From the NCBI GenBank assembly GCA_937858935.1, contig CALLZX010000278.1, forward strand, positions 1-36,716: a DNA stretch of 36,716 nucleotides, written 5' to 3'. The notes under the pieces were generated by a model, which saw only the letters and a program-made list of their open reading frames with translations, was not told the DNA's origin and did no database searches. Position numbers and translations under genes: made by a program. Source of the stretch: an uncultured Ignavibacteriales bacterium. Lineage in GTDB: Bacteria; Bacteroidota; Ignavibacteria; Ignavibacteriales; Ignavibacteriaceae. This document shows positions 7,295-35,881 of this stretch, in pieces. The stretch's first letter is position 1. Each line of letters starts with the position of its first letter.

Positions 7295-9856
7295 TCAGTT
7301 AACTTTTACAATAACCATAGTCATATCATCATTAGGCAGAGCTGAACCTCTAAAGTATTTTACTTCACTCCATACTTTATTCATTACCTCTGTTGAGCGA
7401 GTGTTTGCTTTACCTTTTAAAATTTCGGTAAGTTTTTCTTCACCAAACATTTCATCCTTTTCATTCATTGCTTCAGTAATTCCATCTGAAAAGAATGCAA
7501 ATATCTGATTTGATTTTGTTTTTATTTCAACTTCCTGTAAAGTTCTATCAAACACTTCGCCTTTTTCTAGTCCTAAACCAATGCCTTCGGTTTTAATCGA
7601 TTCAACAGTTCCATTATTAGCAGTGAGTAGCGGCATATGACCGGCACGGCAGAATCTAACGGTTTTATTCTCAGTATCAAATAAAGCAAGTGTCATAGTT
7701 ATAAACCAGCTTCTCTCAATAGATTCATATAACCGTTTATTAATTTCTATCAATATTTCTTTTGGACTTGTACTTATTTTTGTTGCTATCTGAACCATCG
7801 TTTGTAGTTTTGTCATATATAATGATGCAGATAATCCTTTACCGGAAACATCTCCAACAGCAACAAATAATTTAGTATCTGAAAGTTGAATAAGATCATA
7901 ATAATCACCACCTACTTGCATTGCAGGAATCATTTCACCACATATATCTAAGCCATTAAGATTAGGAACACATTTGGGTAATAATCCTTGCTGTATTTTT
8001 CTTGCAAGATCAAGATCCCTTTCAATTTTTATTTTCTCAGATTCAGATTGATAGAGTCTTGCATTTTCCAATGAAATAGCTATTTGATTTGCAGCGGCAT
8101 TTAAAAGCTCAAGATCTTTACCGCCAAATTTAGATCCCGAATACTTTAGACCAAACAAAAGTGCACCAACAACTTTCGATTTTACAATCATCGGTATTAT
8201 TGAATAAACACCTTCTTCAATTAATCTGTCGGCTTTATCGGGAAAAACTCTAATGAAGTCTTGTTGTTCGATTACAGGAGTATTTGATACTAACGCTTTT
8301 TCATTAAAGACGGCAATGAGATTAGATTTTTCAATTGTACAGTTTGGATTTGAAAATCCTATGCCACGGGATAATGTTAATATATCTTTTGAATAATCTC
8401 GTAATAGAATTCCAAACTTATTAATTTTAAGTGCATCAATAAAAGTTGCACATGTAAGATCGAGTATCTTATCAGTTCCCACTACGGTTGATACATCATT
8501 GCTAAATTGAATAAGTACTTTTTGATAGGCAAACTGTTCCGGATAAAATTTTCTTGTAAGGAAATCCTGAAATCGATCTTTAGTTGATTGAAAAACAAAT
8601 GCAAAAATCAGAAAGAAAATACCAGCAACAAATCCCTGATTATCTGCACCGACAAAACTACCTATACCTTGCCCTAACAAATAAATAACTACAAAATATA
8701 TTCCAGCAACAGTAGCCATTGCGGCGCCATAAATAATCGAATTTCTAATAACAATACTAACATCAAGTAGATGATATTTTAATATTGCATATGCGTATGC
8801 AACCGGAACAATTGCAATCAATACAATAGGCATATAATATTCCGGAGAGTTAAATATTGTATCAGAGATTGCAGGAGCAATTGTTCCAACATAAAATTGT
8901 ATTATTAATCCAAATGAAAAGGCTAGCACAAAAATTAACACTGGTTTTTTATTCTCAGTATTCTTTGCTTTAAAGTATTGAACAATTAAGGAAACCGCAC
9001 AGGAAATGTAAAGGATAATTAAAAATAAGTTAAATATTTTCTGATACGTGTTAAAGTATTTTTGAGTAGCAAAATCGGTTACACCAAGAGAAATCGCCAG
9101 AGAAATTCCAAGCAGACTAAGAATTAAAACGGATGTTATAATTACTATTTTAGTAATTTTTTTCTTTGAGAATTGAAACTGGTTTGGAAATGACCAGGTA
9201 AAATAAAGCGATATAAAAGGGATCGCAGTTTGACTTGCGATTATAATAATTGCAGCAAAAACTGCTACCACTGAATGATCTGTTATGAACGATTTGAAAT
9301 AAATATCATTTAATGGAAAGAAAACATGAATTGCGGACAGCACACCTAAAACGCCAATTGCAAAGAATAATTTCTGAGCCAGGCCATCAGGTTTAGCAGT
9401 GTAAACTAAAAAACCAATCAACAGATACAACAAGCCACTGATAGCTGCTGCGAGTGAACCAAATTGAATTAGTTTTTTAACGTAAACTTTTGTATGAACA
9501 ATTTTACCATCAGGTTTTTGGATCGCATAATCAGCATATTCACCAGATTTGAATTCATTAAGAATTCTTTGCGCCTCAAAAGTAGTTTTAAGGTTTTTAT
9601 TATCAATCTGTAGAAGTAAATCTCCGTCTCTTATTCCAGCATTATATGTGACCCCTTCAATCTTAACATTTTTAAATACCATCTTCATAGAATCTTGAGT
9701 TACCTTTATTGGGTCCCAGATACATTCATCATTTGAAGTGACTCTTATTTCAAGTGAAAAATAAATAGAGAGCACGGCAATAAAAGCAAGGATTAAAGTT
9801 AATCCTGAGGCTATGTTTAACCTGTACTTAATAAAAAATCTTTTAAGATTATTCAT
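7295..9856 (-). CDS. Membrane PP2C/SpoIIE-type phosphatase with PDZ-like, multi-TM and GAF sensor regions
   Basis: An 853-residue signalling phosphatase expected to dephosphorylate a phospho-STAS antagonist. In order: a first membrane helix (about 14-33); a PDZ-like extracytoplasmic domain (about 55-125, with AGIRDGDLLLQIDNK); seven or more helices (about 131-425); then YHLLDVSIVIRNSIIYG (361-377), resembling the 'DIDVIIRRTLVYG' segment of 7TM sensor kinases. These are followed by a GAF domain (about 440-600), a short helical linker (IERDLDLARKIQQGLLP, 611-627) and a PP2C domain (about 635-853). Metal-ligand aspartates are present: D651 in GGDYYD, D669 in GDVSGKG, D791 in SDG, and D843/D844 in NDDMT. 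It starts 31 bases after the preceding phosphatase gene in the same operon. The phosphatase call is firm; the stimulus is unknown. Confidence 0.88.
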   Translation of the reverse strand: MNNLKRFFIKYRLNIASGLTLILAFIAVLSIYFSLEIRVTSNDECIWDPIKVTQDSMKMVFKNVKIEGVTYNAGIRDGDLLLQIDNKNLKTTFEAQRILNEFKSGEYADYAIQKPDGKIVHTKVYVKKLIQFGSLAAAISGLLYLLIGFLVYTAKPDGLAQKLFFAIGVLGVLSAIHVFFPLNDIYFKSFITDHSVVAVFAAIIIIASQTAIPFISLYFTWSFPNQFQFSKKKITKIVIITSVLILSLLGISLAISLGVTDFATQKYFNTYQKIFNLFLIILYISCAVSLIVQYFKAKNTENKKPVLIFVLAFSFGLIIQFYVGTIAPAISDTIFNSPEYYMPIVLIAIVPVAYAYAILKYHLLDVSIVIRNSIIYGAAMATVAGIYFVVIYLLGQGIGSFVGADNQGFVAGIFFLIFAFVFQSTKDRFQDFLTRKFYPEQFAYQKVLIQFSNDVSTVVGTDKILDLTCATFIDALKINKFGILLRDYSKDILTLSRGIGFSNPNCTIEKSNLIAVFNEKALVSNTPVIEQQDFIRVFPDKADRLIEEGVYSIIPMIVKSKVVGALLFGLKYSGSKFGGKDLELLNAAANQIAISLENARLYQSESEKIKIERDLDLARKIQQGLLPKCVPNLNGLDICGEMIPAMQVGGDYYDLIQLSDTKLFVAVGDVSGKGLSASLYMTKLQTMVQIATKISTSPKEILIEINKRLYESIERSWFITMTLALFDTENKTVRFCRAGHMPLLTANNGTVESIKTEGIGLGLEKGEVFDRTLQEVEIKTKSNQIFAFFSDGITEAMNEKDEMFGEEKLTEILKGKANTRSTEVMNKVWSEVKYFRGSALPNDDMTMVIVKVN

Positions 9857-9887
9857 CGTTTTCTAATATTGATTTAATTTCATATTT

Positions 9888-11567
9888 CTATTTTACTTTT
9901 ATAACAACTAAAGTTATATCGTCTGATTGATTAGCACCATCCGTAAATCTTTGCACTTCACTTTGTATTTCTTTTAATATAGTTTCAGCTGAAGCGCTTG
10001 CCATTTCTAAGGATAATTTTTCTAAAGCTTCATCAGAAAATTCCTCACTTTTTTTATTCATAGCTTCAGAAATTCCATCTGTAAACATTACAAGTACATC
10101 ATCTTTCATTAATTGTATCTTTTCTGATCGATAAGGCAAAATGGTTTTCATCACGCCAAGAATCATTCCACCAATTTCAAGTTTTATGATTTTCCCGTCT
10201 CTTATAAGCAAAGGTGGATTATGACCAGCATTTACATACTTAAAAGTCATATCGATATTATTAAGTATTCCCCAGAAAAATGTAATGAATTTTCCATCAG
10301 CAGTATTTTTTGAGATAAGATCATTTATTAATCCGGTTGCTTCATCCAAAGGAACATTCTGTCTGCATATAACTTGCAAAAATGCCTGCATATTAGCCAT
10401 AAGCAATGATGCGGGAACGCCTTTGCCCGATACATCCGCAATTGCAACAACACAACCATCATTATCAAGTTCAATTATGTCATAATAATCACCACCAACT
10501 TGTTTTGAGGATACATTTACAGCAGCTATATCAAAATTTTTGTATACAGGAATTTTTTGTGGAAGTAGATTTCTTTGGATCTCCCTTGCAAGATCTAACT
10601 CTTCTTCCATCTTTTGTTTTTCTAATGCTTCCCTAAAGAGTCTTCTGTTTTCCATTGAAATGATTGCCAGACTTCCGACAGAAAAAATAAATTCTATATC
10701 AGCATCAGTGTAATCAACATTATTTATTCTTCTACCTAAAATAATCAGTCCTTTTGTCCTCCCCTGTATCTGCATCGGAACAATTACTTCTATTCCCATA
10801 CTATATAATGAAGGAAATAACAAAGCAACTTGTTCTTTATTTAAAGAAGCATCTATTCTGTGGTAATCAATTTTCCTAAGGTTGCTTAAAAGCTCCTCAA
10901 CAGGCAGTTTCGGTTCAATAACCTCAATATCATTTCCTTCAAATCGTAACAGAGCATATTTCTGAACTAGAAACTGTCCTATCAAAGAAAATATTAAGAG
11001 TCTTGTAACTTTTGTGGATTCAGAAAATAACCCGAATTCCTTACTGAGTTCAAATAGTGAGCTTAGTCGTTGTATTCTTGAATCAAGCTCCCGATTAACT
11101 AATTTTAATTCTTCAACTATTAGTGAGTTCTGAATAGCTGAAGCAGCGATATTTAAAATTGTTTTTAGAAAATCTAAGTCATCCTTGGAATAATCCTGCT
11201 TGTTAAGTTTTTCACCAAGACATACTATTCCAACACATTCATTTGATGAACTTATCTTTTCAGACGCTAAAAGATTATTATCAGTAAAAAAATTTTTTAA
11301 TTCATCATTTTCAGTACAATCTTCACTCGCATCAATATTCGGGAAAAGGGAAATACTTTCTTCGCTAATTCCTTTATAAGATTTAATCTGAAGTTTTCCA
11401 CTTATATTTAAGGCAATAACTCCTCTAGTGGCTAAAAATTTACCAAGGCAGGTTAAAAGAACATTGTTCAGAATAAAATTAAGATCAAGGCTGGAATTAA
11501 TTACTCTACTGAATTCAACCAGCGCCGTAAGATTACGTTTAGCTTTTAAATTATCATTATCCTGCAT
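9888..11567 (-). CDS. Cytoplasmic GAF-GAF-PP2C phosphatase (RsbU-like)
   Basis: A 559-residue soluble phosphatase with no membrane helix. Two GAF-like sensor domains (about 10-150 and 165-310) lead through a helical linker (EEELDLAREIQRNLLP, 321-336) into a PP2C/SpoIIE domain (about 345-559). Metal-site residues are present: D360 in GGDYYD, D378 in ADVSGKG, the FTDGISEA segment and the terminal SDDITLVVIK. The family removes phosphate from STAS antagonists so that they can sequester an RsbW-like kinase. Its ATG overlaps the end of the kinase gene by 11 bases, so the two products are probably made in a coupled ratio. The GAF ligands cannot be predicted from sequence. Confidence 0.9.
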   Translation of the reverse strand: MQDNDNLKAKRNLTALVEFSRVINSSLDLNFILNNVLLTCLGKFLATRGVIALNISGKLQIKSYKGISEESISLFPNIDASEDCTENDELKNFFTDNNLLASEKISSSNECVGIVCLGEKLNKQDYSKDDLDFLKTILNIAASAIQNSLIVEELKLVNRELDSRIQRLSSLFELSKEFGLFSESTKVTRLLIFSLIGQFLVQKYALLRFEGNDIEVIEPKLPVEELLSNLRKIDYHRIDASLNKEQVALLFPSLYSMGIEVIVPMQIQGRTKGLIILGRRINNVDYTDADIEFIFSVGSLAIISMENRRLFREALEKQKMEEELDLAREIQRNLLPQKIPVYKNFDIAAVNVSSKQVGGDYYDIIELDNDGCVVAIADVSGKGVPASLLMANMQAFLQVICRQNVPLDEATGLINDLISKNTADGKFITFFWGILNNIDMTFKYVNAGHNPPLLIRDGKIIKLEIGGMILGVMKTILPYRSEKIQLMKDDVLVMFTDGISEAMNKKSEEFSDEALEKLSLEMASASAETILKEIQSEVQRFTDGANQSDDITLVVIKVK

Positions 11568-11994
11568 TGCTCTGCGCTACTTTTATGTTTTTTGATAGCA
11601 GCACTTCATTATACTTTCCGGGAACGGAAACATATTTAACATCATCCATAAGTGTTTTCATTAAGTACATTCCTAAACCACCGACTCTTCTTTGCCTATA
11701 ATATTTTTGTAAATCAGGCTCTGGAATCATTTCTGGTTCAAAAGATTTTCCGTAGTCAGTAATACTAACTTCAAAACGAGAAAGTGTAGATTTTGTTTTG
11801 ATAATCAGTTCCCCGTCAGGAAAAGATTTATAAGCGTGCTTTATAATATTAGTGCAAGCTTCATCCACAGCAAGAATGATATTTTCCACAGCATCAGCCG
11901 CCACCCCCGCATCAGCAGCAGAAGAGCTTATAAAATCTCTGATAGTAGAAAGATTTTCAGTTTTGCTTTTTACTTTAAGTTTTTTTGTCTTCAC
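11557..11994 (-). CDS. RsbW/SpoIIAB-like serine kinase and anti-sigma factor
   Basis: A 145-residue GHKL-fold ATPase of the HATPase_c_2 type. In partner switching, such kinases bind either a sigma factor (or another target) or an unphosphorylated STAS antagonist, which they phosphorylate and release. The N-box VDEACTNIIKHAY (43-55, metal-binding N49), the G1 motif ITDYGKSF (78-85) and the G2 motif GGLGMYLMK (105-113) are intact, so ATP binding is expected. It sits between a STAS gene (one base upstream) and the GAF-GAF phosphatase (11-base overlap). It is the only kinase of this type in the window, against three phosphatases and two STAS proteins. Its target is not visible: no SigB/SigF-type sigma factor is nearby. 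Confidence 0.9.
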   Translation of the reverse strand: MKTKKLKVKSKTENLSTIRDFISSSAADAGVAADAVENIILAVDEACTNIIKHAYKSFPDGELIIKTKSTLSRFEVSITDYGKSFEPEMIPEPDLQKYYRQRRVGGLGMYLMKTLMDDVKYVSVPGKYNEVLLSKNIKVAQSNAG

Positions 11995-11995
11995 T

Positions 11996-12349
11996 TTATT
12001 TTATCTCTGTAAATTTCTTTACTGCTTCGTCTTCCGATTTGAAAATTTCATAAAGCAAAGGAAATCCTAACAGATCAAAAATGTTATAAACTTTATCACT
12101 CATTCCGGAAAGTTTAATGTCTCCCTTGCTGTCTCTAATTTTTTCTATGTATGCCATAAATACACCTAAACCTGCACTGCTTATGTAGGCCAAATCTTTA
12201 AAGTCAACTACAATCTGGTAACAACTCTTTTCAATAAGATCTACAAAATTATTCTCAAGGATTGGTGCAGTATGTGCATCAAGATATCCTTTAAGGTTTA
12301 TTATACTTACAGCACCTTGGTTTTTAATTGAGGTGTTGAATTCTGCCAT
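11996..12349 (-). CDS. STAS-domain anti-sigma factor antagonist (RsbV/SpoIIAA-like)
   Basis: A 117-residue single STAS domain. The phosphorylation loop reads VVDFKDLAYISSAGLG (47-62) with serines 57-58 at the position modified by RsbW-type kinases, followed by the usual SDKVYNIFDLLGF segment. When unphosphorylated it should bind the neighbouring kinase and free that kinase's target. The ATG at 12349 is supported by GGAG at 12357-12360, seven bases upstream. This start lies inside the 3' end of the phosphatase gene, giving a 43-base overlap in a different frame. The kinase gene follows after one base, so phosphatase, antagonist and kinase are tightly coupled. Confidence 0.92.
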   Translation of the reverse strand: MAEFNTSIKNQGAVSIINLKGYLDAHTAPILENNFVDLIEKSCYQIVVDFKDLAYISSAGLGVFMAYIEKIRDSKGDIKLSGMSDKVYNIFDLLGFPLLYEIFKSEDEAVKKFTEIK

Positions 12350-14424
12350 TCTTTAACTCCATCTATGTTATTTTTTTTATGCCACTTTAATATAACTAAA
12401 GTTATATCATCATACTGAGAGTGGTTTCTGGAAAATAATGTAACATCTTTTATTACTTCATTAGCAATTTTGTTTACTGATTCGTTCGAATATTCAATTA
12501 AAATTTCGGCAAATCTTTGCTCACCAAAATCTTCGAATTCTTTGTTTTTAGCTTCGGTAATTCCATCGGTATAAAAAACTAAAGTGTCATTTTGCTTAAG
12601 ATCAATTTTAATTTCTTCCAGATGATTACTAAACAAATCCTGATTGGTCAATCCAAGTCCAATACCTGACGGTTTAAATGTTTCTACTGAGCTGCCTCTG
12701 ACTAAAAGAGCGGGACAGTGACCTGCACGCGCAAAGCGAATAACTTCATCATTAAAATCGATAATTCCGTAAAGGGCACTAACAAAACTCTTTTTATTTA
12801 AAGTATTTTGTAAAATCTCGTTAGCCTTTATTAAGATATCTTTGGGACTTTCAATCATTCTTGAGAGTGAACTGAATATTCCTTTTACTTCAGCCATAAT
12901 AAATGCGGCTGAAATTCCTTTACCTGAAACATCAGCAATTATAAAACCAAACTTACTTTTTGATATCTCAAAAAAGTCATAGTAATCACCGCCAACTTCA
13001 AATGCGGGAATAAATACAGAAGTAACTGAAAGATCTTTAAACTTTGGGTCGCTGGCTGGTAATATTTTTTTCTGGATTTCTCTTGCAACATCCAATTCTT
13101 TTTCAAGCCGTTCTTTTTCAATTGATTGCTCAAGTAACAAAGAATTTTCCATTGCAACAGATGCGTAATCTGAAAAAGTATTTATTGCAGCTTTATCTTC
13201 TTCATAAAATATCAGCTCGTTTTTTCTTGCTGCAAATAAATAACCTTTTATTTCATTATAACTTCTTAGCGGAGAAATAGCTATGCTTCCGAATTTTTCT
13301 GAAAGCTGAGATTTGTTACCAAACTTTTGCAGACTGCAAATTTTAGTTTCGGTTATATTCTCACAAATTCCGCTTTCAAGTAAAAACCGATTTATTAAAT
13401 CAGCATCAACTAATGCAATATTTCTATTTGCAAGAATTTTTTTATCGCCATTTTCTTTGATGACTATCCAGGCTGCATCTGCGCTGCTAACTTTTGTTGT
13501 AATATCTGTGATTGTTTCTGCCAGCTCTTCAATATCTAAAACTCGTGTAATTAGTTTACTGAAATACTGTAATGATGATACTTCATTAGCTTTTCTATCA
13601 TAAGCTTCTGCTGTTGGAATATGGAATAGCGTGGTAAAAAACAGAACTACAAAATATATCCCACCATAAATCAGAATAAGATTAAAGAACTGATAAATTG
13701 TTGGAGAATAGTTCATCAAAATAGTACCGTTAAAATCTGTTTTACCATTGTTGATAAGATTTAATATGAAAAGTGCGGATATAATAATAGAAAGAATAAG
13801 TAATGAGATTTTTTCTTTTTTTGATATAAATGCTATCCAGGAAATCTTAATCGAATTGAAGGATATGAGGATTATTGAGATAATAAAAAAGGTATTGTGG
13901 ATGAATTCATATTCTTCGCCTTTAAAAAGTAAATTCGAAATTGAAGATAACGCGATGAATATAGACATAGTAATAAAGTATGTATTCTTTCTACGATATT
14001 GTTTATAAAAATATAATTCCTTTAATGCTGCAAACCAGTAACTTGAAATTCCTAAGAACATTAATCCATAAAAAGAATTAATTAGGTTTTCAAACATTCC
14101 CTGGTTGACTAATCTGTCACCAATACTTTGAATTTGAACTTTCAAGATATTTTCCGCAAACAATATCACCAGAAAAATCAAGGCACAGATAATTCCAATG
14201 TTTAGAACAAGTGCTGAAGGATGAGGTTTTTTTTGCCCAAAAACTTTGACGAGATATAATGTTAAAAATGTAAGGAGTAGTATTGATAACAAATCGTTAA
14301 TTAAAAAGAACGCATAAGAATCGCTGGGAAAGAAAAGCAACCGATATATAAATATGGCGCCGACTAATGATGCAATTACCCAGAGAATAAGATTAGCGCT
14401 TATTTTAATGCTGATTAGGTTCAA
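12307..14424 (-). CDS. Membrane GAF-PP2C/SpoIIE-type phosphatase, first gene of the partner-switch operon
   Basis: A 705-residue protein with about eight membrane helices in residues 10-265, a GAF-like domain (about 285-430), a helical linker (EKELDVAREIQKKILP, 441-456) and a PP2C domain (about 465-680). Metal-site residues are D480 in GGDYYD, D498 in ADVSGKG, the FYTDGITEA segment and YDDITLVILKW. The last 20 or so residues lie past the PP2C fold and are encoded by the 43-base overlap with the STAS gene. They look like read-through sequence, not a domain. The start is a TTG at 14424 with only a weak GGA upstream; the next in-frame start candidates would cut into the first helix. It should sense a membrane-linked signal and dephosphorylate a STAS protein. 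Confidence 0.88.
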   Translation of the reverse strand: MNLISIKISANLILWVIASLVGAIFIYRLLFFPSDSYAFFLINDLLSILLLTFLTLYLVKVFGQKKPHPSALVLNIGIICALIFLVILFAENILKVQIQSIGDRLVNQGMFENLINSFYGLMFLGISSYWFAALKELYFYKQYRRKNTYFITMSIFIALSSISNLLFKGEEYEFIHNTFFIISIILISFNSIKISWIAFISKKEKISLLILSIIISALFILNLINNGKTDFNGTILMNYSPTIYQFFNLILIYGGIYFVVLFFTTLFHIPTAEAYDRKANEVSSLQYFSKLITRVLDIEELAETITDITTKVSSADAAWIVIKENGDKKILANRNIALVDADLINRFLLESGICENITETKICSLQKFGNKSQLSEKFGSIAISPLRSYNEIKGYLFAARKNELIFYEEDKAAINTFSDYASVAMENSLLLEQSIEKERLEKELDVAREIQKKILPASDPKFKDLSVTSVFIPAFEVGGDYYDFFEISKSKFGFIIADVSGKGISAAFIMAEVKGIFSSLSRMIESPKDILIKANEILQNTLNKKSFVSALYGIIDFNDEVIRFARAGHCPALLVRGSSVETFKPSGIGLGLTNQDLFSNHLEEIKIDLKQNDTLVFYTDGITEAKNKEFEDFGEQRFAEILIEYSNESVNKIANEVIKDVTLFSRNHSQYDDITLVILKWHKKNNIDGVKEWQNSTPQLKTKVL
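12357..12360 (-). promoter_or_regulatory. Ribosome binding site inside the upstream phosphatase gene
   Basis: GGAG on the minus strand lies seven bases before the ATG at 12349. It fixes the STAS start within the coding region of the preceding phosphatase and shows the overlap is used rather than an annotation artefact. Confidence 0.7.
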
Positions 14425-14601: not shown

Positions 14602-16173
14602 TTAAATTTCAATCTCGTCAAGATCAACTGGTTTTACTTGTTGTTTATTTTTTTTACTTTGTCCCGAATCTATTTCACCAGGTTTTGTTAATTCATTTCT
14701 AAATTGCTGCAGTTCTCTTCTTAATTTATCCATCTCATTTTTAAGTTCTTGATTCTGCATAAGTATTAAACTATCATTATAAAAAAACTGAATGCTGTTT
14801 TCCTGAGAATCATTTTTCATTCTTTCTTTTTGTTCGATACGATTTTTATCATTCTGCATATTTTTTATATGCATTAAAGAATCAAGATTAACATCTGTCC
14901 TGCCCTTTTTATTAGGAGTAACAGTATTGTATTCATAATTATAACTCTTATTTCCAACAGTCATTGGTGGTGCTGGTGGGCGAACGGATCTAACGTTTTG
15001 TGTGGCTTCGTGAATTACAATTGCGATGCTATCAAAATTAGGTAAGTCTATTTCCGGAATATCAATTGTAACATTTTGAACACTTACTTTAATAAGATCT
15101 GAATCAACAAATACCTTAAATTGTTTTGTCCAATCAGAATTGTTTTTTTGTTTACTAATGGATGAATCAACTTTAAAATGGTATTCTCGTAAAACTGCTT
15201 TTTGCTCACTTAATTCAGCCAAATCCTCAGTCATTTTTTCCATATTTTTTTCGAATTCAGTCATATCAAAAACAAAATCTTCTTTAAAAATGGAATCTGG
15301 AGTACAGAAGATGTATTGATCATCTTTCAGAGACTTAGCCTCATTAACCCATTTGGCAATGGAATGATTATCAAACTGCATTACCTGCTCGGGGATCATT
15401 TTATTAAAATTGGAGGTGGCATGCTTTTCCGCAAATGCAAGTATGTCAGCTAATATAAGTTTTCTTGTATTCCAGATATTAGGATTTATTGCCACAGCAT
15501 TCTGATTATTCACTAAAACTAAAGCTGATATCTGCTCAGAGTAAGATCCGATAATAGAATCGATCTTTTTGATCTCTTCATCATCAAAATCTAGAGCAGT
15601 AACAAATTTCTGCAAATTATTATTCTGAGAAATATCATCAGATTTTTTGATTTCAAAATACTCAGTACCTTTAACGTCATAACCCAGTTTTAGTATTTGA
15701 TTATTTGTATTGTCTAAAGGAAGTTCCTGATATACAGCAAAGTTAAAAATGTCTTCGTTGGTAAGATTAGCAGCGTAAAGTAATGGTTGTAAATTTTCTT
15801 TGTAGAATCCTATAATATTGGATTCCTGCTGCTTGATAATGTCATCTAAAAGATTAGGATTAAACTTTAACACAGCCATTAGTGCTAATGTAAACATAGT
15901 AAGTGCCGAAATTGGGATCCATTTTTTAATATTAAACTTAGAAGAATTTTGTTCATTTATACTTGCGTATAATCTTGTTTCAAAAAATGGTGATTCAGAA
16001 ATCCGATCAACAGATGTAGAAGTGAGTTCCTTAAGTTTCTTTAAATCAGATAATTCTTTTTGTAATTCTAAAGAAGATTTAATCTTCTCTTCAATATATT
16101 TTTTTTCTGTGGTGGATAGTTCTCCATCCACATAAGCAGAAAGTAATTCGATATCTGTATTATTTTTCTTCAT
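14602..16173 (-). CDS. Membrane anti-sigma factor of the ECF sigma gene, with a large extracytoplasmic domain
   Basis: A 523-residue protein encoded directly after the ECF sigma gene with an ATGA overlap, the standard arrangement of a sigma/anti-sigma pair. Residues 8-50 (ELLSAYVDGELSTTEKKYIE and following) match the N-terminal helices of anti-sigma domains, but the HxxxCxxC zinc motif is missing, so it would be a zinc-free variant. One membrane helix lies at about 85-103. The remaining roughly 420 residues should be outside the cytoplasmic membrane. A segment at 193-215 (ALDFDDEEIKKIDSIIGSY and on) faintly recalls CpxP/Spy-type helices. The C-terminus (about 432-500) is charged and probably coiled coil. 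The extracytoplasmic part matches no domain I recognise. Anti-sigma function is inferred from position and the N-terminus. Confidence 0.75.
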   Translation of the reverse strand: MKKNNTDIELLSAYVDGELSTTEKKYIEEKIKSSLELQKELSDLKKLKELTSTSVDRISESPFFETRLYASINEQNSSKFNIKKWIPISALTMFTLALMAVLKFNPNLLDDIIKQQESNIIGFYKENLQPLLYAANLTNEDIFNFAVYQELPLDNTNNQILKLGYDVKGTEYFEIKKSDDISQNNNLQKFVTALDFDDEEIKKIDSIIGSYSEQISALVLVNNQNAVAINPNIWNTRKLILADILAFAEKHATSNFNKMIPEQVMQFDNHSIAKWVNEAKSLKDDQYIFCTPDSIFKEDFVFDMTEFEKNMEKMTEDLAELSEQKAVLREYHFKVDSSISKQKNNSDWTKQFKVFVDSDLIKVSVQNVTIDIPEIDLPNFDSIAIVIHEATQNVRSVRPPAPPMTVGNKSYNYEYNTVTPNKKGRTDVNLDSLMHIKNMQNDKNRIEQKERMKNDSQENSIQFFYNDSLILMQNQELKNEMDKLRRELQQFRNELTKPGEIDSGQSKKNKQQVKPVDLDEIEI

Positions 16174-16757
16174 AACATTAGCTCTTTTTCAAGAGGTTTA
16201 AGTATTTTTTTTAGAGCCTCTCTTGCTCTGAATATTCTTGATTTAATAGTTCCAATTTCACATTCCATAGTATCAGCAATTTCCTGATAACTAAATCCTT
16301 CAAGATCTTTTAGGACAAGAGGAATTCTCAATTTATCCGGCAAAGTTGCAATAGCATTACGAACAATATGCTTAATATCTGTGTCTTCATTTATGGATTC
16401 AAAAACTGGTTCTTCATCCTTCAAAGGTAAAAATATGCTTCTAATATTCTTTTTTCTTAAATGGTCCTTACATTTATTAATTGTAATTCTGTAAAGCCAG
16501 GTTGTAAACTGAGATTCAAACCTAAAACTCTTTAAGTGCCTGTAGACCGTAATAAATACTTCCTGGGCAATATCATCAACTCCATCACTATTTGATAAAG
16601 TCAGATAAATAATATTTCTAACTTTTTCTTTATGACGCTTAAGTAGTTCACTAAAAACTGATTCGTCACCTTCAATAAATTGCTTAATCAGTGAAAAATC
16701 ATCATCAAGATTTAAGATTTTTGGTTGCTGCATATTCTCGTTTTGTTCGTAATCCAT
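16170..16757 (-). CDS. ECF (RpoE-type) RNA polymerase sigma factor
   Basis: A 195-residue sigma factor with region 2 at about 22-102 (DDIAQEVFITVYRHL, then FTTWLYRITINKCKDHLRKK) and region 4 at about 139-186 (LPDKLRIPLVLKDLEGFSYQEIA, then GTIKSRIFRAREALKK). There is no region 1 or 3, as expected for group 4 sigma factors. It should be held inactive by the downstream membrane anti-sigma factor. A sigma-E-like promoter at 16788-16760 ends only two bases before the ATG at 16757, so a transcript from it would begin at about that codon. The ATG at 16733 (Met 9), preceded by GAG, may then be the real start. The first eight residues look dispensable, since region 2 begins after residue 20. Confidence 0.92.
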   Translation of the reverse strand: MDYEQNENMQQPKILNLDDDFSLIKQFIEGDESVFSELLKRHKEKVRNIIYLTLSNSDGVDDIAQEVFITVYRHLKSFRFESQFTTWLYRITINKCKDHLRKKNIRSIFLPLKDEEPVFESINEDTDIKHIVRNAIATLPDKLRIPLVLKDLEGFSYQEIADTMECEIGTIKSRIFRAREALKKILKPLEKELML

Positions 16758-16923: not shown

Positions 16924-17262
16924 ATGAAAACAAAACTATTAGAAAAGTACAATGCCGTAATTGTTGAGCTCAAAGGCAATGTAATGGGTGGTGAAGATAC
17001 TAAAGAGTTTAATGAACTTTTGCATAAACTTATTGATGAAGGAAAGAAAAACGTAATTGTGGATCTTTCTGAAGTTAAATTTATGAATAGTTCCGGCCTC
17101 GGTATGTTGATCAGTGGTTTGACCACAATGAAAAGAGAAAACGGAAGTCTGAAGCTTGCACATGTAACTGAAAAAATTGAAAGTTTGCTCATAATTACCA
17201 AACTTATTACAATTTTTGAATCTTATGATACTGTAGATGAAGCTGTAAAAAGTTTCGATTAA
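16924..17262 (+). CDS. Second STAS-domain anti-sigma factor antagonist
   Basis: A 112-residue single STAS domain. The loop VDLSEVKFMNSSGLG (46-60) carries serines 56-57 at the phosphorylation position and matches the SpoIIAA signature more closely than the first STAS protein does (SSGLG versus SSAGLG). It ends with the usual TKLITIFESYDTVDEAV segment. GGAG at 16913-16916, seven bases before the ATG, supports the start. The gene stands alone between a divergent ECF operon and purA and is closed by its own terminator, so it is expressed separately from the partner-switch operon. It may compete for the same kinase or serve another one elsewhere in the genome. Confidence 0.9.
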   Translation: MKTKLLEKYNAVIVELKGNVMGGEDTKEFNELLHKLIDEGKKNVIVDLSEVKFMNSSGLGMLISGLTTMKRENGSLKLAHVTEKIESLLIITKLITIFESYDTVDEAVKSFD

Positions 17263-27274: not shown

Positions 27275-29497
27275 ATGAAAAATATCATATCACTCAGTGT
27301 TGCATTAATTATTTCTGTATCCACATTTCCACAGCAACAATCCAATTGGCAAAATTATGCTGATATGAAATCAGTAAAAGATATTGCTGCAACGGCAACC
27401 GGTATCTGGTCTGCTGCTCAAGGCGGTGCATATTTTTATAATACCTCGGATAGCATATTTAATACTTATAGTAAATCTGACGGATTAAATGGCACTGAAC
27501 TTACTGCAATTGGAATTGATAATTATAATAAGATTTGGTTTGGAAGTGCAAGTGGTCTTATAGATGTTTACGATCCCCAAGCTAACTCATTTCGATCAAT
27601 TCTTGATATATATAATTCAGATAAAACAAGTAAAAAAATAAATGATATTTCCATATCCGGAGATACTATTTATGTTGCAACAGATTTTGGCATTTCTTTA
27701 ATCGATTCTAAAAGTTATCTGTTTTATGACACTTACTTTAAATTCGGAAGTTTTACATCTAACATAAAAGTAAATAATATTTTGTTTGCAAATTTAATTT
27801 ATGCATCTACAGAATCTGGTATTGTAATACAAAAGGCTGAAGCAACAAATTTATCTGCTCCCGAATCTTGGAATGTCTTTGATCAAGCTAGCGGGTTGCC
27901 AACAGGTGGCAGTAATGTTATTGGTTTTTATGGTAGCACATTAATTGCCGGTACAAATTCCGGGTTATATAGTTTTAATGGCAGCACCTGGCAGCAATAT
28001 TTAAATTTATCAGGTATTAAGATTATAGATCTATTATCAATCGGGAACACTTTATATATTCTATCGCCAAGTAAAATCTATTCTTATGATGGCACTAATT
28101 TAATTGAGGTTTGGACAACTAGTTCACAACCTGCTAAACTTAGTTATCATCAAAGTGCCGGATTGATTGTTGCAACAAAGTTAGGAATTTATGTTAATGA
28201 TAATTTTATATATCCAAATGGTCCGGCTGCAAATCAGTTTCCGAATATGACTGTTGATAGAGAAGGTAACTTATGGTCTGCCAGTGGTAAAGATGTTACC
28301 GGTGTAGGAGTTTATAAATACAATAGATCTGATTGGGAAATTTATGATGTTCAACATTATCCTGAACTATTTACTAATGCCTATTACTCCATTTTTTCAA
28401 GTTCAGATAATTCCATCTACGCAGGAAGTTGGGGACAGGGATTTTCAAAAATAACTAATAATGGAATTACAAGATTTCATTCCGGAAATACTGGTATGAT
28501 AGGAATTCCGAACAACCTTGATTTTATTGTCATAACAGGCTTTGCAGAAGATTCAAAAGGTAATATATGGGTATTGAATTTAAATGCAGCCGATAGCAAA
28601 TCCTTATATGTTTTTACCTCCGATAGTATGTATTCATTTAGAAATCCACTCGAACAGCATTCCGGATTCACTGAGGTTGAGAATTTGGTTATTGATCAGT
28701 ATGGCACCAAATGGTATACAATGGGTAATGAAGGCAGTTTGGGACTGTTTTACTTTAATGAAAAAGGCACGTACGAAGATCCAACCGATGATGTATATGG
28801 ATACATCACAACAACCAAAGGTCTAACGAGTAATGCGATATATAGTTTAGCAATTGATCGCAGAGGTGATTTATGGGTGGGAACAAGTTTAGGCGTAAAT
28901 ATTATAACCAATCTTAATACAGTTTTAACTTCTTCAAATCCACCAATAAAAATAACATCTGCATTTTCTGTACGACAACAAACTATCAATGCACTTGTTG
29001 TTGATCCTCTTAATCAGAAATGGCTTGGCACAAATCAGGGGTTGTTTTTATTAAGCACTGATGGAACTCAATTGCTTGCAACGCTTGATACTAAAAATAG
29101 TCCACTGCTTTCAGATCAGATAGAAAGTTTAGCAATTGATGAAGAGACTGGAACAGTATATGTCGGTACTGCGTCAGGCTTAACATCTTTCGATACACCA
29201 TCAATACTTCCTGTTGAAACATTTAACGGATTAAATATCTACCCAAATCCGCTTGTTATATCTGACGGAAACAAACTTGTAACAATAGATGGACTTATTA
29301 GAAATACAGATATTAAAATTGTAACTGTTTCCGGTAAGTTAATTCGAGAATTTTCTTCTCCCGGCGGACGAACAGCATTTTGGGATGGACGTGATGACGA
29401 TGGTAATTTAGTAAGCAGCGGGGTATATATAATTATTGCATTTGATCAAGAAGGTAACAGTGTTGAAACAGGTAAAATTGCCGTATTGAGAGAATAG
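27275..29497 (+). CDS. Secreted two-component-regulator-type beta-propeller protein with C-terminal sorting-like domain (PorZ-like)
   Basis: A 740-residue exported protein with a signal peptide (about 1-19). The body is built of propeller repeats of the Reg_prop type. Repeated W-containing strands such as NKIWFGSASGL, GNLWSAS, GNIWVLN, GTKWYTMG, GDLWVGTSLGV, QKWLGTNQGL and VYVGTASGL suggest two or more propellers. The last 90 or so residues (LNIYPNPL through VSSGVYIIIAF to the end) form an Ig-like FlgD/type IX sorting-type domain. The size and order match PorZ of Porphyromonas (776 residues), a type IX secretion surface component, so PorZ is the best single guess. A generic secreted propeller protein is the alternative. 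AGGA precedes the ATG. No other type IX genes are in the window. Confidence 0.75.
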   Translation: MKNIISLSVALIISVSTFPQQQSNWQNYADMKSVKDIAATATGIWSAAQGGAYFYNTSDSIFNTYSKSDGLNGTELTAIGIDNYNKIWFGSASGLIDVYDPQANSFRSILDIYNSDKTSKKINDISISGDTIYVATDFGISLIDSKSYLFYDTYFKFGSFTSNIKVNNILFANLIYASTESGIVIQKAEATNLSAPESWNVFDQASGLPTGGSNVIGFYGSTLIAGTNSGLYSFNGSTWQQYLNLSGIKIIDLLSIGNTLYILSPSKIYSYDGTNLIEVWTTSSQPAKLSYHQSAGLIVATKLGIYVNDNFIYPNGPAANQFPNMTVDREGNLWSASGKDVTGVGVYKYNRSDWEIYDVQHYPELFTNAYYSIFSSSDNSIYAGSWGQGFSKITNNGITRFHSGNTGMIGIPNNLDFIVITGFAEDSKGNIWVLNLNAADSKSLYVFTSDSMYSFRNPLEQHSGFTEVENLVIDQYGTKWYTMGNEGSLGLFYFNEKGTYEDPTDDVYGYITTTKGLTSNAIYSLAIDRRGDLWVGTSLGVNIITNLNTVLTSSNPPIKITSAFSVRQQTINALVVDPLNQKWLGTNQGLFLLSTDGTQLLATLDTKNSPLLSDQIESLAIDEETGTVYVGTASGLTSFDTPSILPVETFNGLNIYPNPLVISDGNKLVTIDGLIRNTDIKIVTVSGKLIREFSSPGGRTAFWDGRDDDGNLVSSGVYIIIAFDQEGNSVETGKIAVLRE

Positions 29498-29503
29498 TTT
29501 TTT

Positions 29504-31456
29504 ATGATAGATCTTTCGAATATTTCACTTCAGTTTGGTGGTAAATATCTTTTTAAGGATGTTAACTATAAAATTTCTTCCGGTGATAAAATTTCTTTAG
29601 TTGGAGCGAATGGTACCGGGAAATCTTCCATTCTCAAAATTATTGCTGGATTACTTCAACCTGAATCTGGCGAAGTATTAAAACAAAAACGTATTACAAT
29701 TGGCTATCTTCCTCAGGATCATGTTACGCATATTGGCAAAACATTATTAGAGGAAGCATCATCTGCATTAACAGATATTATTGAACTTCAGAATAAAGAA
29801 ATATCATTATCAGAAGCTTTAGCAAACCCAAATCTAACTGAAGAAGAACAAATGGATCTCGCACATCAGTTGGGTGAAGTTCATCATAAACTAGATGGAT
29901 TGGACTCTTATTCAGCTGAATCTAAAGTTGAAAAAATTTTAATAGGACTTGGATTCGCAGAGGAAGATTTTTCAAGACTTACGGATCAGTTTTCAGGCGG
30001 ATGGCAAATGCGTATTGCACTTGCAAAAATTCTTATCTCACAAAACGATATTTTGCTTTTGGATGAACCTACAAACCATCTTGATATTGATTCACTAGAA
30101 TGGCTCATTGATTTTCTAAAAGCTTACAGCGGTGGTTTATTGATTGTATCGCACGATATAAATTTTATTAACCAGGTCACAAATCGCACACTCGAAATTT
30201 TTCTCGGTAAGTTTTTTACATTTAAAGGTGATTATGATTCTTATATTAAATATAAAACTGAACGTGATGAACTAACTGTTCATCAGTTTGAGCAACAGCA
30301 GAAAAAGATAAAGGAAACACAAAAATTTATAGAGCGTTTTAGATATAAAGCGACAAAGTCAAGACAAGTTCAAAGCAGAATAAAACAGCTTGATAAGGTT
30401 GACATCATTGAATTACCAGAAGACAAAAGCGAAATTAATATCAAATTTAGTGAACCCCCTCAAAGCGGAAGAACACCGATAAAACTTACATCAATTTTCA
30501 AATCTTATGGACACAAGAAAGTTTTTGAAGGAATTGATTTTGAAATAGAAAAAGGTGAAAAGATTGCCTTTGTTGGCCCAAATGGAGCTGGTAAATCTAC
30601 ACTTGCTAAAATTATTGCCGGAGTAGTTGATTTTAATGCCGGTAATAGAATTTTAGGATATAACACCATAGTTTCTTACTACGCTCAGGATGTTGCCGAT
30701 AATCTTAATCCTTCTTTAGATATAATTGAAACTGTTGACGGCATTGCAGAAGATAAAACTGTTGGGCAATTACGTTCTTTACTTGGTTCGTTTCTTTTTT
30801 CCGGTGATGATGTATTTAAAAAAGTTGGAATACTTTCGGGTGGAGAAAAAAGCAGGATTGCGCTTTGTAAAATATTACTTACAAAAGCTAATTTTATAAT
30901 TCTTGATGAACCTACTAACCATCTTGATTATACTTCAAAATTAATATTACAAAAGGCATTGGTTGATTTTAACGGCTCCCTTATTCTTGTTTCTCATGAT
31001 GTTGACTTCTTACGACCGATCGCTTCAAAAATAATTGATATAAGAAAAGGAAAATTAAAAACATATCTTGGTGATATTGATTATTTTCTCTCAAAACGTG
31101 ATCTATCATCACTGGAAAGAGACACTACGGTAGTCGAAAAAAAAGAAAAAGTAGAAACTATTAATCGTAAAGATCAAAAAAGACTTGAAGCAGAATTACG
31201 TCAGCAAAGACATAACGCCACAAAAAACTTAGTAAAAGAAATTTCAAGTTGGGAAATAAAAGTAAGCTCGTATGAAAATCTTATTAAAGATCTTGAACGT
31301 AAATTAGCGGATCCAAGCATATACAGTGATGGAGAAGCCGCAAAGGATATAACAAACAGGTTTAACAAAACTAAATCTGAACTTGAATTAGCAAATAAAA
31401 AATGGGAAGAACTGACTGAAAAACTTTTAGAAATCGAATCACAGTTTAATTTATAA
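29504..31456 (+). CDS. ABC-F family ATPase (YheS/Uup type)
   Basis: A 650-residue soluble protein with two ATP-binding cassettes and no membrane segment, typical of ABC-F translation factors that act on the ribosome. Cassette 1 has Walker A GANGTGKSS (34-42), signature FSGGWQMRIALAKIL (163-177) and Walker B LLLDEPTNHLD (184-194). Cassette 2 has GPNGAGKST (358-366), LSGGEKSRIALCKIL (444-458) and IILDEPTNHLD (465-475). The linker (about 245-300) is the charged helical pair that reaches tRNA in the family. A C-terminal coiled coil (about 545-648) places it with Uup/YheS-type members. It begins six bases after the propeller gene. A 7-base hairpin (31470-31489) after the stop lacks a clear T run. 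Confidence 0.93.
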   Translation: MIDLSNISLQFGGKYLFKDVNYKISSGDKISLVGANGTGKSSILKIIAGLLQPESGEVLKQKRITIGYLPQDHVTHIGKTLLEEASSALTDIIELQNKEISLSEALANPNLTEEEQMDLAHQLGEVHHKLDGLDSYSAESKVEKILIGLGFAEEDFSRLTDQFSGGWQMRIALAKILISQNDILLLDEPTNHLDIDSLEWLIDFLKAYSGGLLIVSHDINFINQVTNRTLEIFLGKFFTFKGDYDSYIKYKTERDELTVHQFEQQQKKIKETQKFIERFRYKATKSRQVQSRIKQLDKVDIIELPEDKSEINIKFSEPPQSGRTPIKLTSIFKSYGHKKVFEGIDFEIEKGEKIAFVGPNGAGKSTLAKIIAGVVDFNAGNRILGYNTIVSYYAQDVADNLNPSLDIIETVDGIAEDKTVGQLRSLLGSFLFSGDDVFKKVGILSGGEKSRIALCKILLTKANFIILDEPTNHLDYTSKLILQKALVDFNGSLILVSHDVDFLRPIASKIIDIRKGKLKTYLGDIDYFLSKRDLSSLERDTTVVEKKEKVETINRKDQKRLEAELRQQRHNATKNLVKEISSWEIKVSSYENLIKDLERKLADPSIYSDGEAAKDITNRFNKTKSELELANKKWEELTEKLLEIESQFNL

Positions 31457-35110: not shown

Positions 35111-35881
35111 TTAAGGGATACTATACTGAGTTAATTCCATTTTAACATTTGTTTCTGGCGGAAAAATATTTTCATTAAATAAAAAATTAAATACTTCCGA
35201 ATCGCCATCCCATTTTACAAAACCTAAGTCTTTAACCACCCAACCATAAGCTTCATATTGGAATTCAACAGTTGAACTTAATCTTACAACGAAAACATAT
35301 TTTATTTTGAACGCTTGTTTTTGGACCGGAACATTATTTAATGTCAGATTTAAAACTTCATCAGCTACAACACTTGCATCAATATCAAGCACATTAATAC
35401 CAATAATTGTAGCACTTAAACTTAATGTATATACGGGAAATATTTGATTCACAGCCAATGGATAAAATAAAACTCGCGCTTCCCTATCTACTGTTACGTA
35501 TTGCCGCAATGAATCTGGTAGAAAACTAGTAAAGCCAGTCGTATCAGCATAAGAAAATACGCCGGTATTACTATTTCTTATATATGAAATCGAAGTTGTT
35601 GTTAATGTATCGAATGGAATAAATGTTTCAAAAGAATCGATTTGAATTTTATATTTTGTTCCGCCAATTGTTGTACTGTCATCAAAAAGCATAAAACGAT
35701 TACCATTAACTGAAAATCCGGTTGTGTCTGTAATCGTTAAATTGTAGTTAAATGAGGCACCGTCATTAATCACAAAGTACTGATCATTTATGGTTTCAAC
35801 CTGAGGTTCTGTTGTTGATTCTTTACAAGCAGTTGCTAACAAAATTGCAGAAATAATCAGGACAAATATTTTCTTTTTCAT
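35111..35881 (-). CDS. Lipoprotein of unknown function
   Basis: A 256-residue protein with a lipoprotein signal peptide: basic N-terminus, hydrophobic core and an LATAC lipobox with the lipidated cysteine at about residue 19, followed by an acidic, Ser/Thr-rich tether. The remainder is predicted beta-rich by eye, with many alternating hydrophobic and Thr/Ser residues, and contains no catalytic motif I recognise. It is probably attached to the outer or inner membrane facing the periplasm. The gene begins one base after the rdgB stop on the same strand and should be co-transcribed with it. The family is not recognised. Confidence 0.8.
   Translation of the reverse strand: MKKKIFVLIISAILLATACKESTTEPQVETINDQYFVINDGASFNYNLTITDTTGFSVNGNRFMLFDDSTTIGGTKYKIQIDSFETFIPFDTLTTTSISYIRNSNTGVFSYADTTGFTSFLPDSLRQYVTVDREARVLFYPLAVNQIFPVYTLSLSATIIGINVLDIDASVVADEVLNLTLNNVPVQKQAFKIKYVFVVRLSSTVEFQYEAYGWVVKDLGFVKWDGDSEVFNFLFNENIFPPETNVKMELTQYSIP

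What the first reader, a model, noticed from the sequence alone, without database searches (positions are those of the whole stretch)
27275..29497. PorZ-like propeller protein without other type IX genes
Size, Reg_prop-like repeats and the C-terminal FlgD/sorting-like domain match PorZ. In Porphyromonas PorZ helps attach cargo to surface lipopolysaccharide. Finding it here, outside the classical Bacteroidetes, would extend that mechanism, or it may be a distinct secreted sensor.
Basis: partly seen in the sequence, partly recalled or inferred. Interest (0 to 1): 0.5.

Follow-up and report, generated by a model that had tools for sequence, protein, structure and literature searches.

The report
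Genuine PorZ with its partner genes
The gene is a true PorZ, a surface protein that in gum-disease bacteria hands a sugar-lipid anchor to the enzyme tethering secreted proteins; its bacterium also carries the partner genes, so the protein is ordinary, although the usual motor of this export system was not found.

Summary
ORF 27275-29497 (+, 740 aa) is a full-length PorZ: 394.7 bits against NCBIfam NF052228 (cut-off 260). P. gingivalis PorZ 5m11 ranks first by sequence and by fold: propellers Z 36.5 over 608 residues, CTD Z 13.4. 'Without other type IX genes' holds for the 29 window proteins scanned but fails for the genome: PorU 950 bits, 12 PorV-family proteins, SprA in pieces, 145 type A tails over cut-off, PorZ's and PorU's own included. 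Nearest named relatives are Ignavibacterium and Ignavibacteriales. PorZ matches in 149 of 149 class genomes, 127 over cut-off. New member of a known kind. The less ordinary point lies outside the window: in a panel of 30 class genomes SprA and PorU are over cut-off in 30 of 30, GldK, GldL and GldN in 0 of 30 (6 of 6 controls, chosen for having GldM). A 2024 paper gives Ignavibacterium SprA, PorV and Plug but no other T9SS protein (PMC11705866); these data agree on the motor and add PorU and PorZ.

The parts
27275..29497 (+). porZ gene, 740 aa, type IX secretion surface component
   Evidence: NF052228 394.7 bits, cut-off 260; 5m11 E 2.1e-53; Foldseek rank 1, TM 0.68
27275..27331 (+). signal peptide (about residues 1-19), ending before a Gln run; cleavage position inferred, no signal-peptide predictor was run
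   Evidence: hydropathy; several relatives read AQQQ or FPQQQ at the junction
27362..28204 (+). first beta-propeller (about residues 30-310); blades not counted
   Evidence: PF21544 at residues 44-200; model strands; single-propeller VIA rows cover about residues 30-310
28235..29200 (+). second beta-propeller (about residues 321-642); blades not counted
   Evidence: Reg_prop at residues 516-538; 5m11 alignment over residues 23-651. Closure by the N-terminal strand, as in 5m11, fits this range, but pLDDT at residues 21-30 is only about 41
29231..29494 (+). C-terminal T9SS signal domain (about residues 653-740), beta-sandwich; closest to the CTD of P. gingivalis PorZ
   Evidence: domain model pLDDT 89.7; Foldseek 5m11 rank 1, E 3.9e-7; VIA 5m11 Z 13.4; TIGR04183 26.8 bits in the genome scan

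Best explanation
This is the PorZ of an Ignavibacterium-like bacterium. It is made with a signal peptide, crosses the inner membrane by Sec, is exported through SprA by means of its own C-terminal domain, and stays on the surface with that domain in place. There it works with PorU and PorV-type barrels as the attachment complex. Its propellers hold a surface glycolipid and present it to PorU, which cuts the sorting tail off a cargo protein and joins the cargo to the glycolipid. Shown here: gene, family membership, fold, PorU with C25-type His and Cys motifs, SprA, PorV-family proteins and some 140 other tailed proteins in the genome. Inferred from P. gingivalis: export route, retention of the tail, complex formation, glycolipid delivery. 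The ligand is probably a lineage-specific polysaccharide rather than P. gingivalis A-LPS.
For: Equivalog match end to end, 394.7 bits, cut-off 260. PDB rank 1 is 5m11 by sequence (profile E 2.1e-71 over residues 25-740) and by fold. The CTD alone also finds 5m11 first (Foldseek E 3.9e-7; Z 13.4, rmsd 2.6, 93 residues). PorU 949-950 bits, cut-off 420, reading NYIGHG...FLCAATC, with a PorV-family start directly downstream, cut by the contig end (that these motifs are the catalytic ones is recalled). PorV family 12 over cut-off; SprA 200.7 bits, cut-off 200; 145 tails over cut-off of 146 matches, this protein's and PorU's included. PorZ in 149 of 149 class genomes, 127 over cut-off.
Against: No ligand or interaction could be tested. 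The genome is 84.8% complete in 472 contigs and its SprA lies in pieces. The whole-protein model has mean pLDDT 71 from 8 sequences and is unreliable over residues 642-740. Identity to 5m11 is 23-25%. Double propellers of unrelated proteins also reach TM 0.5-0.58 or rmsd 6.4 over 562 residues (5m2n), so the fold alone is not the proof. That the tail is of the uncleaved kind is not settled: PorU's CTD is second by VIA (Z 10.8) but tied with complement domains (Z 10.2), and by Foldseek it ranks 19, below two cargo CTDs (ranks 3 and 4). Six of the 149 class genomes have only weak PorZ matches, E from 7.1e-15 to 4.3e-10. Some models used are not wholly specific: TIGR04183 rings in 2 of 14 control genomes, one over cut-off; PorU, PorV and PorZ ring below cut-off in 2, 1 and 1 of 14. 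GldK, GldL, GldM and GldN, the energy chain known from the studied species, were not recognised.
Confidence: 0.85

Rival explanations
1. A periplasmic or surface sensor of the two-component-regulator propeller type (BT4663-like), unrelated to secretion.
For: Reg_prop repeats match; BT4663 and BT3049 are the next matches by sequence and the next rows by Foldseek E-value.
Against: No kinase or Y_Y_Y part was matched; a T9SS tail is present; the PorZ equivalog is passed by about 135 bits; the interdomain arrangement fits 5m11 at rmsd 3.9 but the sensors at rmsd 17-18.
Confidence: 0.04
2. An ordinary T9SS cargo with a propeller passenger, whose tail is cut off by PorU.
For: The genome has 145 type A tails over cut-off and this protein's is one of them. 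By Foldseek two cargo CTDs (RemA, RemZ complexes) rank above the CTD of PorU.
Against: The tail's best match by both aligners is the CTD of PorZ itself; PorZ is kept across the class, 149 of 149 genomes with a match; the order CRP, PHP, porZ, ABC-F is kept in seven near-relatives and in the closed same-genus genome, unlike an accessory cargo.
Confidence: 0.05
3. A PorZ that still binds PorU but has lost glycolipid delivery, in a system that releases cargo instead of anchoring it.
For: T. forsythia PorZ does not bind P. gingivalis A-LPS and PorU-PorZ pairing is species specific (PMC8545088 section 10); GldK, GldL and GldN are not recognised in the class panel.
Against: PorU keeps its C25-type His and Cys motifs in the own genome, and both PorZ and PorU are kept across the class samples.
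Confidence: 0.06

Closest known systems
PorZ of Porphyromonas gingivalis (PDB 5m11)
   Same: Full-length homology, two beta-propellers in the same relative arrangement, C-terminal T9SS domain, PorU and PorV-family proteins in the same genome.
   Different: 23-25% identity; lineage in its own phylum in NCBI taxonomy; ligand untested; no GldK, GldL or GldN over cut-off in 30 class genomes.
BT4663/BT3049 sensor propellers of Bacteroides thetaiotaomicron
   Different: Different interdomain arrangement (rmsd 17-18 over 540-547 residues); they belong to kinases, no kinase match here.
T9SS translocon set of Ignavibacterium and Melioribacter (PMC11705866: section 8 and passages)
   Same: SprA and PorV present; Gld motor proteins not found.
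   Different: That paper states that no other T9SS protein is present, and the held main text has no mention of PorU or PorZ; here PorU, PorZ and, in two genomes, a PorX-like protein are found.

Membership tests
PorZ (NCBIfam NF052228) | Full-length match over the curated equivalog cut-off | tested here: met
   394.7 bits, cut-off 260, profile 1-757
PorZ (NCBIfam NF052228) | Two propellers in PorZ's arrangement | tested here: met
   5m11 Z 36.5, rmsd 3.9, 608 residues; blades were not counted
PorZ (NCBIfam NF052228) | C-terminal T9SS beta-sandwich domain | tested here: met
   domain model: 5m11 first by Foldseek and VIA (E 3.9e-7, Z 13.4); TIGR04183 26.8 bits in the genome scan but 22.2, under the cut-off of 23, in the protein scan
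PorZ (NCBIfam NF052228) | Tail retained, not cleaved by PorU | tested here: inconclusive
   closest CTD is PorZ's own, but PorU's CTD (Z 10.8) is tied with unrelated domains (Z 10.2) and two cargo CTDs precede it by Foldseek
PorZ (NCBIfam NF052228) | Genome encodes PorU, PorV and Sov/SprA | tested here: met
   class panel: PorU 30 of 30 and SprA 30 of 30 over cut-off; PorV run on the own genome only
PorZ (NCBIfam NF052228) | Binds anionic lipopolysaccharide and PorU on the cell surface | not testable with these tools
   binding is experimental; known for P. gingivalis (PMC8545088)
Canonical type IX secretion system with GldKLMN/PorKLMN energy chain | GldL and GldM motor with GldK and GldN ring | tested here: inconclusive
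   GldK, GldL, GldN over cut-off in 0 of 30 class genomes and 6 of 6 controls each (controls chosen for having GldM); GldM none in the own genome and none in the 20 class-or-closer genomes listed in a 148-genome phylum sample; a strongly diverged motor would be missed
BT4663-like sensor | Propellers attached to a kinase | tested here: not met
   no kinase or Y_Y_Y match in the ORF at E 0.001; the ORF ends in a T9SS tail

The most novel reading that the evidence does not exclude
The whole class to which this genome belongs runs a type IX system with translocon (SprA), carrier (PorV), sortase (PorU) and anchor-delivery protein (PorZ), but without the GldKLMN energy chain that extracts cargo from the translocon in Flavobacterium. 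Cargo release would then be powered some other way, for instance by PorU/PorZ-coupled tail cleavage and anchoring on the surface, or by an unrelated motor.
Probability: 0.35. Interest if true: 0.72.

Novelty: new member of a known kind. Interest (0 to 1): 0.33.

Why it matters
As a protein it is an expected PorZ, so the finding itself is modest. It matters as a correction: the one paper found here that states which T9SS parts Ignavibacterium has lists SprA, PorV and Plug and no other (PMC11705866 section 8), whereas PorU is over cut-off in 30 of 30 and PorZ matched in 149 of 149 genomes of the class. In Flavobacterium, substrates stay on the translocon when the motor is removed, and the authors infer that energy is needed to extract them (PMC10994853, passages). 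A class that keeps the translocon and attachment proteins while the Gld motor proteins are unrecognisable therefore makes the question of what powers type IX secretion testable in a natural case.

Tried and rejected
Sensor reading: tested by fold arrangement and rejected. Isolated PorZ: rejected. I looked for a motor beside sprA in two closed genomes, one of the same genus and one of the same order (L049, L051). The five genes after sprA (523/522, 141, 223/218, 238/242 and 279 aa) had sizes that made me expect ExbD/TolQ-like parts; they match a response regulator with PglZ domain (PorX-like; that PorX has this make-up is recalled), TsaE, TsaD-family, DUF1573 and an acetyl-CoA carboxylase subunit, so no motor lies there. 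The GldK search gave sub-cut-off matches at E 1e-20 or better in 5 of 30 class genomes (G145, G032, G006, G007, G043), read as the sulfatase-modifying family to which GldK is related (PMC11705866, passage); the GldL search gave one weak match (G002, E 9.6e-4), read as chance.

Limits of the panel: I chose its 30 class genomes from the 149 for completeness and family spread. It holds none of the six genomes whose PorZ match is only weak (G035, G054, G075, G094, G101, G144). One member (G027) has PorZ under cut-off (245 bits); the other 29 are over. The six controls were chosen because they carry GldM over cut-off, so their 6 of 6 for GldK, GldL and GldN is partly selection. GldM was not run on the panel. 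PorV was run only on the own genome. PorT, PorW, PorG and Plug were not searched. The PorU and GldK panel searches listed only matches at E 1e-60 and 1e-20 or better. The 145 tails may be a lower bound: 150 of 168 candidates were scored. Whether the organism makes LPS or a glycan suited to PorZ was not tested. Blades were not counted.

Among the rows shown, PMC11285876 names both PorZ and Ignavibacteriota, but not together in the passages I saw; PMC9916696, on asparaginases, holds the string 'porz' once and was not opened. I saw no paper on PorZ in Ignavibacteria. Two papers that might bear on motor distribution were not held, and only openly licensed papers are held, so this is no proof of absence from print. 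For the papers cited I saw named sections or passages, not whole texts.

Full report
Observation. The ORF at 27275-29497 on the + strand is real and complete: ATG start, 740 aa, stop at 29497, with a coding-like GC pattern by codon position (0.40/0.41/0.22). It starts 106 bases after the end of the lumazine synthase gene and is followed six bases later by an ABC-F ATPase gene. Pfam finds PorZ_N_b_propeller (63.6 bits, cut-off 27) and Reg_prop (52.4, cut-off 20.4). NCBIfam finds the PorZ equivalog over its full length at 394.7 bits, cut-off 260. The sorting tail TIGR04183 is borderline in the protein scan (22.2, cut-off 23) and over cut-off in the genome scan (26.8).

Fold. By sequence the best solved structure is 5m11, P. 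gingivalis PorZ: E 2.1e-53 for the single sequence, and E 2.1e-71 over residues 25-740 for the profile of eight relatives. The AlphaFold2 model has mean pLDDT 71.3 and pTM 0.63, with residues 642-740 unreliable. Foldseek ranks 5m11 first, TM 0.68 on both lengths; the next 15 rows, all sensor chains of the BT4663, BT3049 and BT4673 kind, have TM 0.32-0.35, and unrelated double WD propellers further down reach TM 0.5-0.58. VIA-align gives 5m11 Z 36.5, rmsd 3.9 over 608 residues; the sensors reach Z 26.5-27.6 only with rmsd 17-18, so the propellers are set against each other as in PorZ and not as in the sensors; an unrelated double propeller, 5m2n, aligns over 562 residues at rmsd 6.4. I modelled the C-terminal 99 residues apart, with 15 sequences: pLDDT 89.7. 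Its best match by both aligners is the CTD of PorZ (Foldseek E 3.9e-7; Z 13.4, rmsd 2.6, 93 residues). The CTD of PorU comes second by VIA (Z 10.8), but complement domains (Z 10.2) are tied with it, and by Foldseek it is only 19th, below CTDs of two cargo complexes. PorA, PorU and PorZ are named in print as having CTDs that are not removed upon secretion (PMC11285876, passages); whether this tail is retained is thus likely from its kinship with PorZ but not shown by the fold.

Relatives and neighbourhood. A scan of named genomes returned 18 loci: eight near-relatives aligning over 620-740 residues at 48-78% identity, titled Ignavibacterium, Ignavibacteriales, Ignavibacteriota or unspecified Bacteroidetes; two Marinimicrobia at 32-33% over the C-terminal half; and eight that share only a C-terminal stretch. 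The Marinimicrobia protein of L031 matches the PorZ model end to end but below its cut-off (228 bits, cut-off 260). I compared gene order in 11 loci. CRP, PHP, porZ and ABC-F keep their order in seven of the eight near-relatives (L023-L026, L028-L030) and in the closed same-genus genome (L050); in L028 and L029 about 1.6 kb lies between ribH and porZ. L027 ends inside porZ. Of the two Marinimicrobia loci, L031 has ribH directly before its porZ-like frame and none of the other genes; L032, only 3.4 kb, shows none. ribH is missing at this place in L025, L026 and L050.

Other type IX genes. The window holds none besides porZ among the 29 proteins scanned with NCBIfam. The genome (3.46 Mb, 472 contigs, 84.8% complete) does: PorU at 950 bits, cut-off 420; twelve of 19 PorV-family matches over cut-off; SprA in pieces on separate contigs, one over cut-off at 200.7 bits; and 145 of 146 matched type A tails over cut-off, those of PorZ and PorU among them. 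The controls show that the tail model is not wholly specific: it rings in 2 of 14 well-known genomes, one over cut-off; PorU, PorV and PorZ ring only below cut-off (2, 1 and 1 of 14), SprA in none. The PorU gene reads through 1329 aa with the motifs NYIGHG and FLCAATC, and a PorV-family start lies just downstream, cut by the contig end.

Distribution. PorZ was sought in 149 genomes of the same class: 149 have a match, 127 over cut-off; six of the 149 have only weak matches (E from 7.1e-15 to 4.3e-10), which may be other propellers. I then fixed a panel of 36 genomes: 30 of the class (own genome included, chosen for completeness and spread over families) and six from elsewhere in the phylum, chosen as positive controls because they carry GldM over cut-off. 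SprA is over cut-off in 30 of 30 and 5 of 6. PorU is over cut-off in 30 of 30 and 4 of 6. GldN is matched in 0 of 30 and 6 of 6. GldL is over cut-off in 0 of 30 and 6 of 6, with one weak class match. GldK is over cut-off in 0 of 30 and 6 of 6, with sub-cut-off matches in 5 of 30. GldM was not run on the panel; it is absent from the own genome, and in a phylum sample of 148 it is over cut-off in 36, all 39 matched genomes lie outside the class, and the 20 class-or-closer genomes listed have none (89 further unmatched genomes were not listed). In two closed genomes sprA is followed by a PorX-like gene (response regulator plus PglZ) and housekeeping genes, not by motor genes.

Literature. P. gingivalis PorZ binds the phosphorylated branched mannan of A-LPS and binds PorU more tightly when A-LPS is present; T. 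forsythia PorZ does not bind P. gingivalis A-LPS (PMC8545088: abstract and sections 10 and 11). The crystal structure paper describes two seven-bladed propellers, closure of the second by the N-terminal strand, and the CTD (PMC5121618: abstract and sections 7 and 8). T9SS presence in Ignavibacteriota is mentioned as possible (PMC11285876, passage; PMC5837995, passage, which also gives Ignavibacterium album a high glutamine value after signal peptides). A 2016 survey that used the Gld proteins among its markers found T9SS only in Bacteroidetes (PMC4793230, passages). A 2020 survey lists for its Incertae sedis group Sov, PorU, PorV and PorZ among eleven components, without PorK, PorL, PorM or PorN (PMC7323717, section 16). 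A 2024 survey says Melioribacter and Ignavibacterium have PorV, SprA and Plug and no other T9SS protein; its held main text has no mention of PorU or PorZ (PMC11705866, section 8 and passages). So the missing motor is already in print for these genera. The presence of PorU and PorZ is what these data add, as far as my ten searches of an open library, with capped listings, can tell.

Reading. The protein is PorZ, and it most likely serves PorU as it does in P. gingivalis, with a different glycolipid. Shown: homology, fold, partners in the genome, class-wide conservation. Inferred: surface export through SprA, retention of the tail, complex with PorU and PorV, glycolipid delivery. The unusual part is the combination of a conserved translocon and attachment proteins with no recognisable GldKLMN. 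In Flavobacterium, substrates stay on the translocon when the motor is removed, and the authors infer that energy is needed to extract them (PMC10994853, passages). Either the motor has diverged beyond these profiles or it is replaced; I give the replaced or absent reading 0.35.

Noticed in passing
window 7295-14424 (-) and 14602-16757 (-): Three SpoIIE-type phosphatases, an RsbW-type kinase and an anti-sigma antagonist, beside an ECF sigma factor and a 523-aa protein with a weak zinc-finger match (17.8 bits, cut-off 22.2): a partner-switching cluster. A STAS protein lies at 16924-17262 (+).
   Followed up: partly
window 29504-31456 (+): An ABC-F ATPase six bases after porZ scores over the cut-off of NCBIfam's ribosomal protection-like model (428 bits, cut-off 380); the porZ-ABCF pair is kept in the eight compared loci that show both genes.
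   Followed up: partly
L025, L026, L050: Lumazine synthase (ribH), upstream of porZ in the window, is missing at that place in three relatives while the flanking genes stay; in the Marinimicrobia locus L031 it lies directly before the porZ-like frame.
   Followed up: no
G150 (unnamed control genome, one contig, 100% complete): The mirror image: GldK, GldL, GldM and GldN are over cut-off, but no SprA match at E 0.001 and no PorU match at E 1e-60 was found.
   Followed up: no
L049:7140-8711 and L051:14022-15590: A PorX-like gene (response regulator plus PglZ) directly downstream of sprA in two closed genomes, one of the same genus and one of the same order.
   Followed up: partly
L031, L032: Marinimicrobia proteins resemble PorZ; that of L031 matches the model end to end at 228 bits, below the cut-off of 260. 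A possible PorZ beyond this phylum.
   Followed up: partly
L033: An Ignavibacteria protein of 1642 aa matches the PorU2 model (351 bits, cut-off 450) and carries a tail 33% identical to this PorZ's; PorU-like paralogues below cut-off also occur in the own genome on C185 and C349.
   Followed up: no
window 35111-35881 (-): A 256-aa ORF without a Pfam or NCBIfam match at the thresholds used.
   Followed up: no
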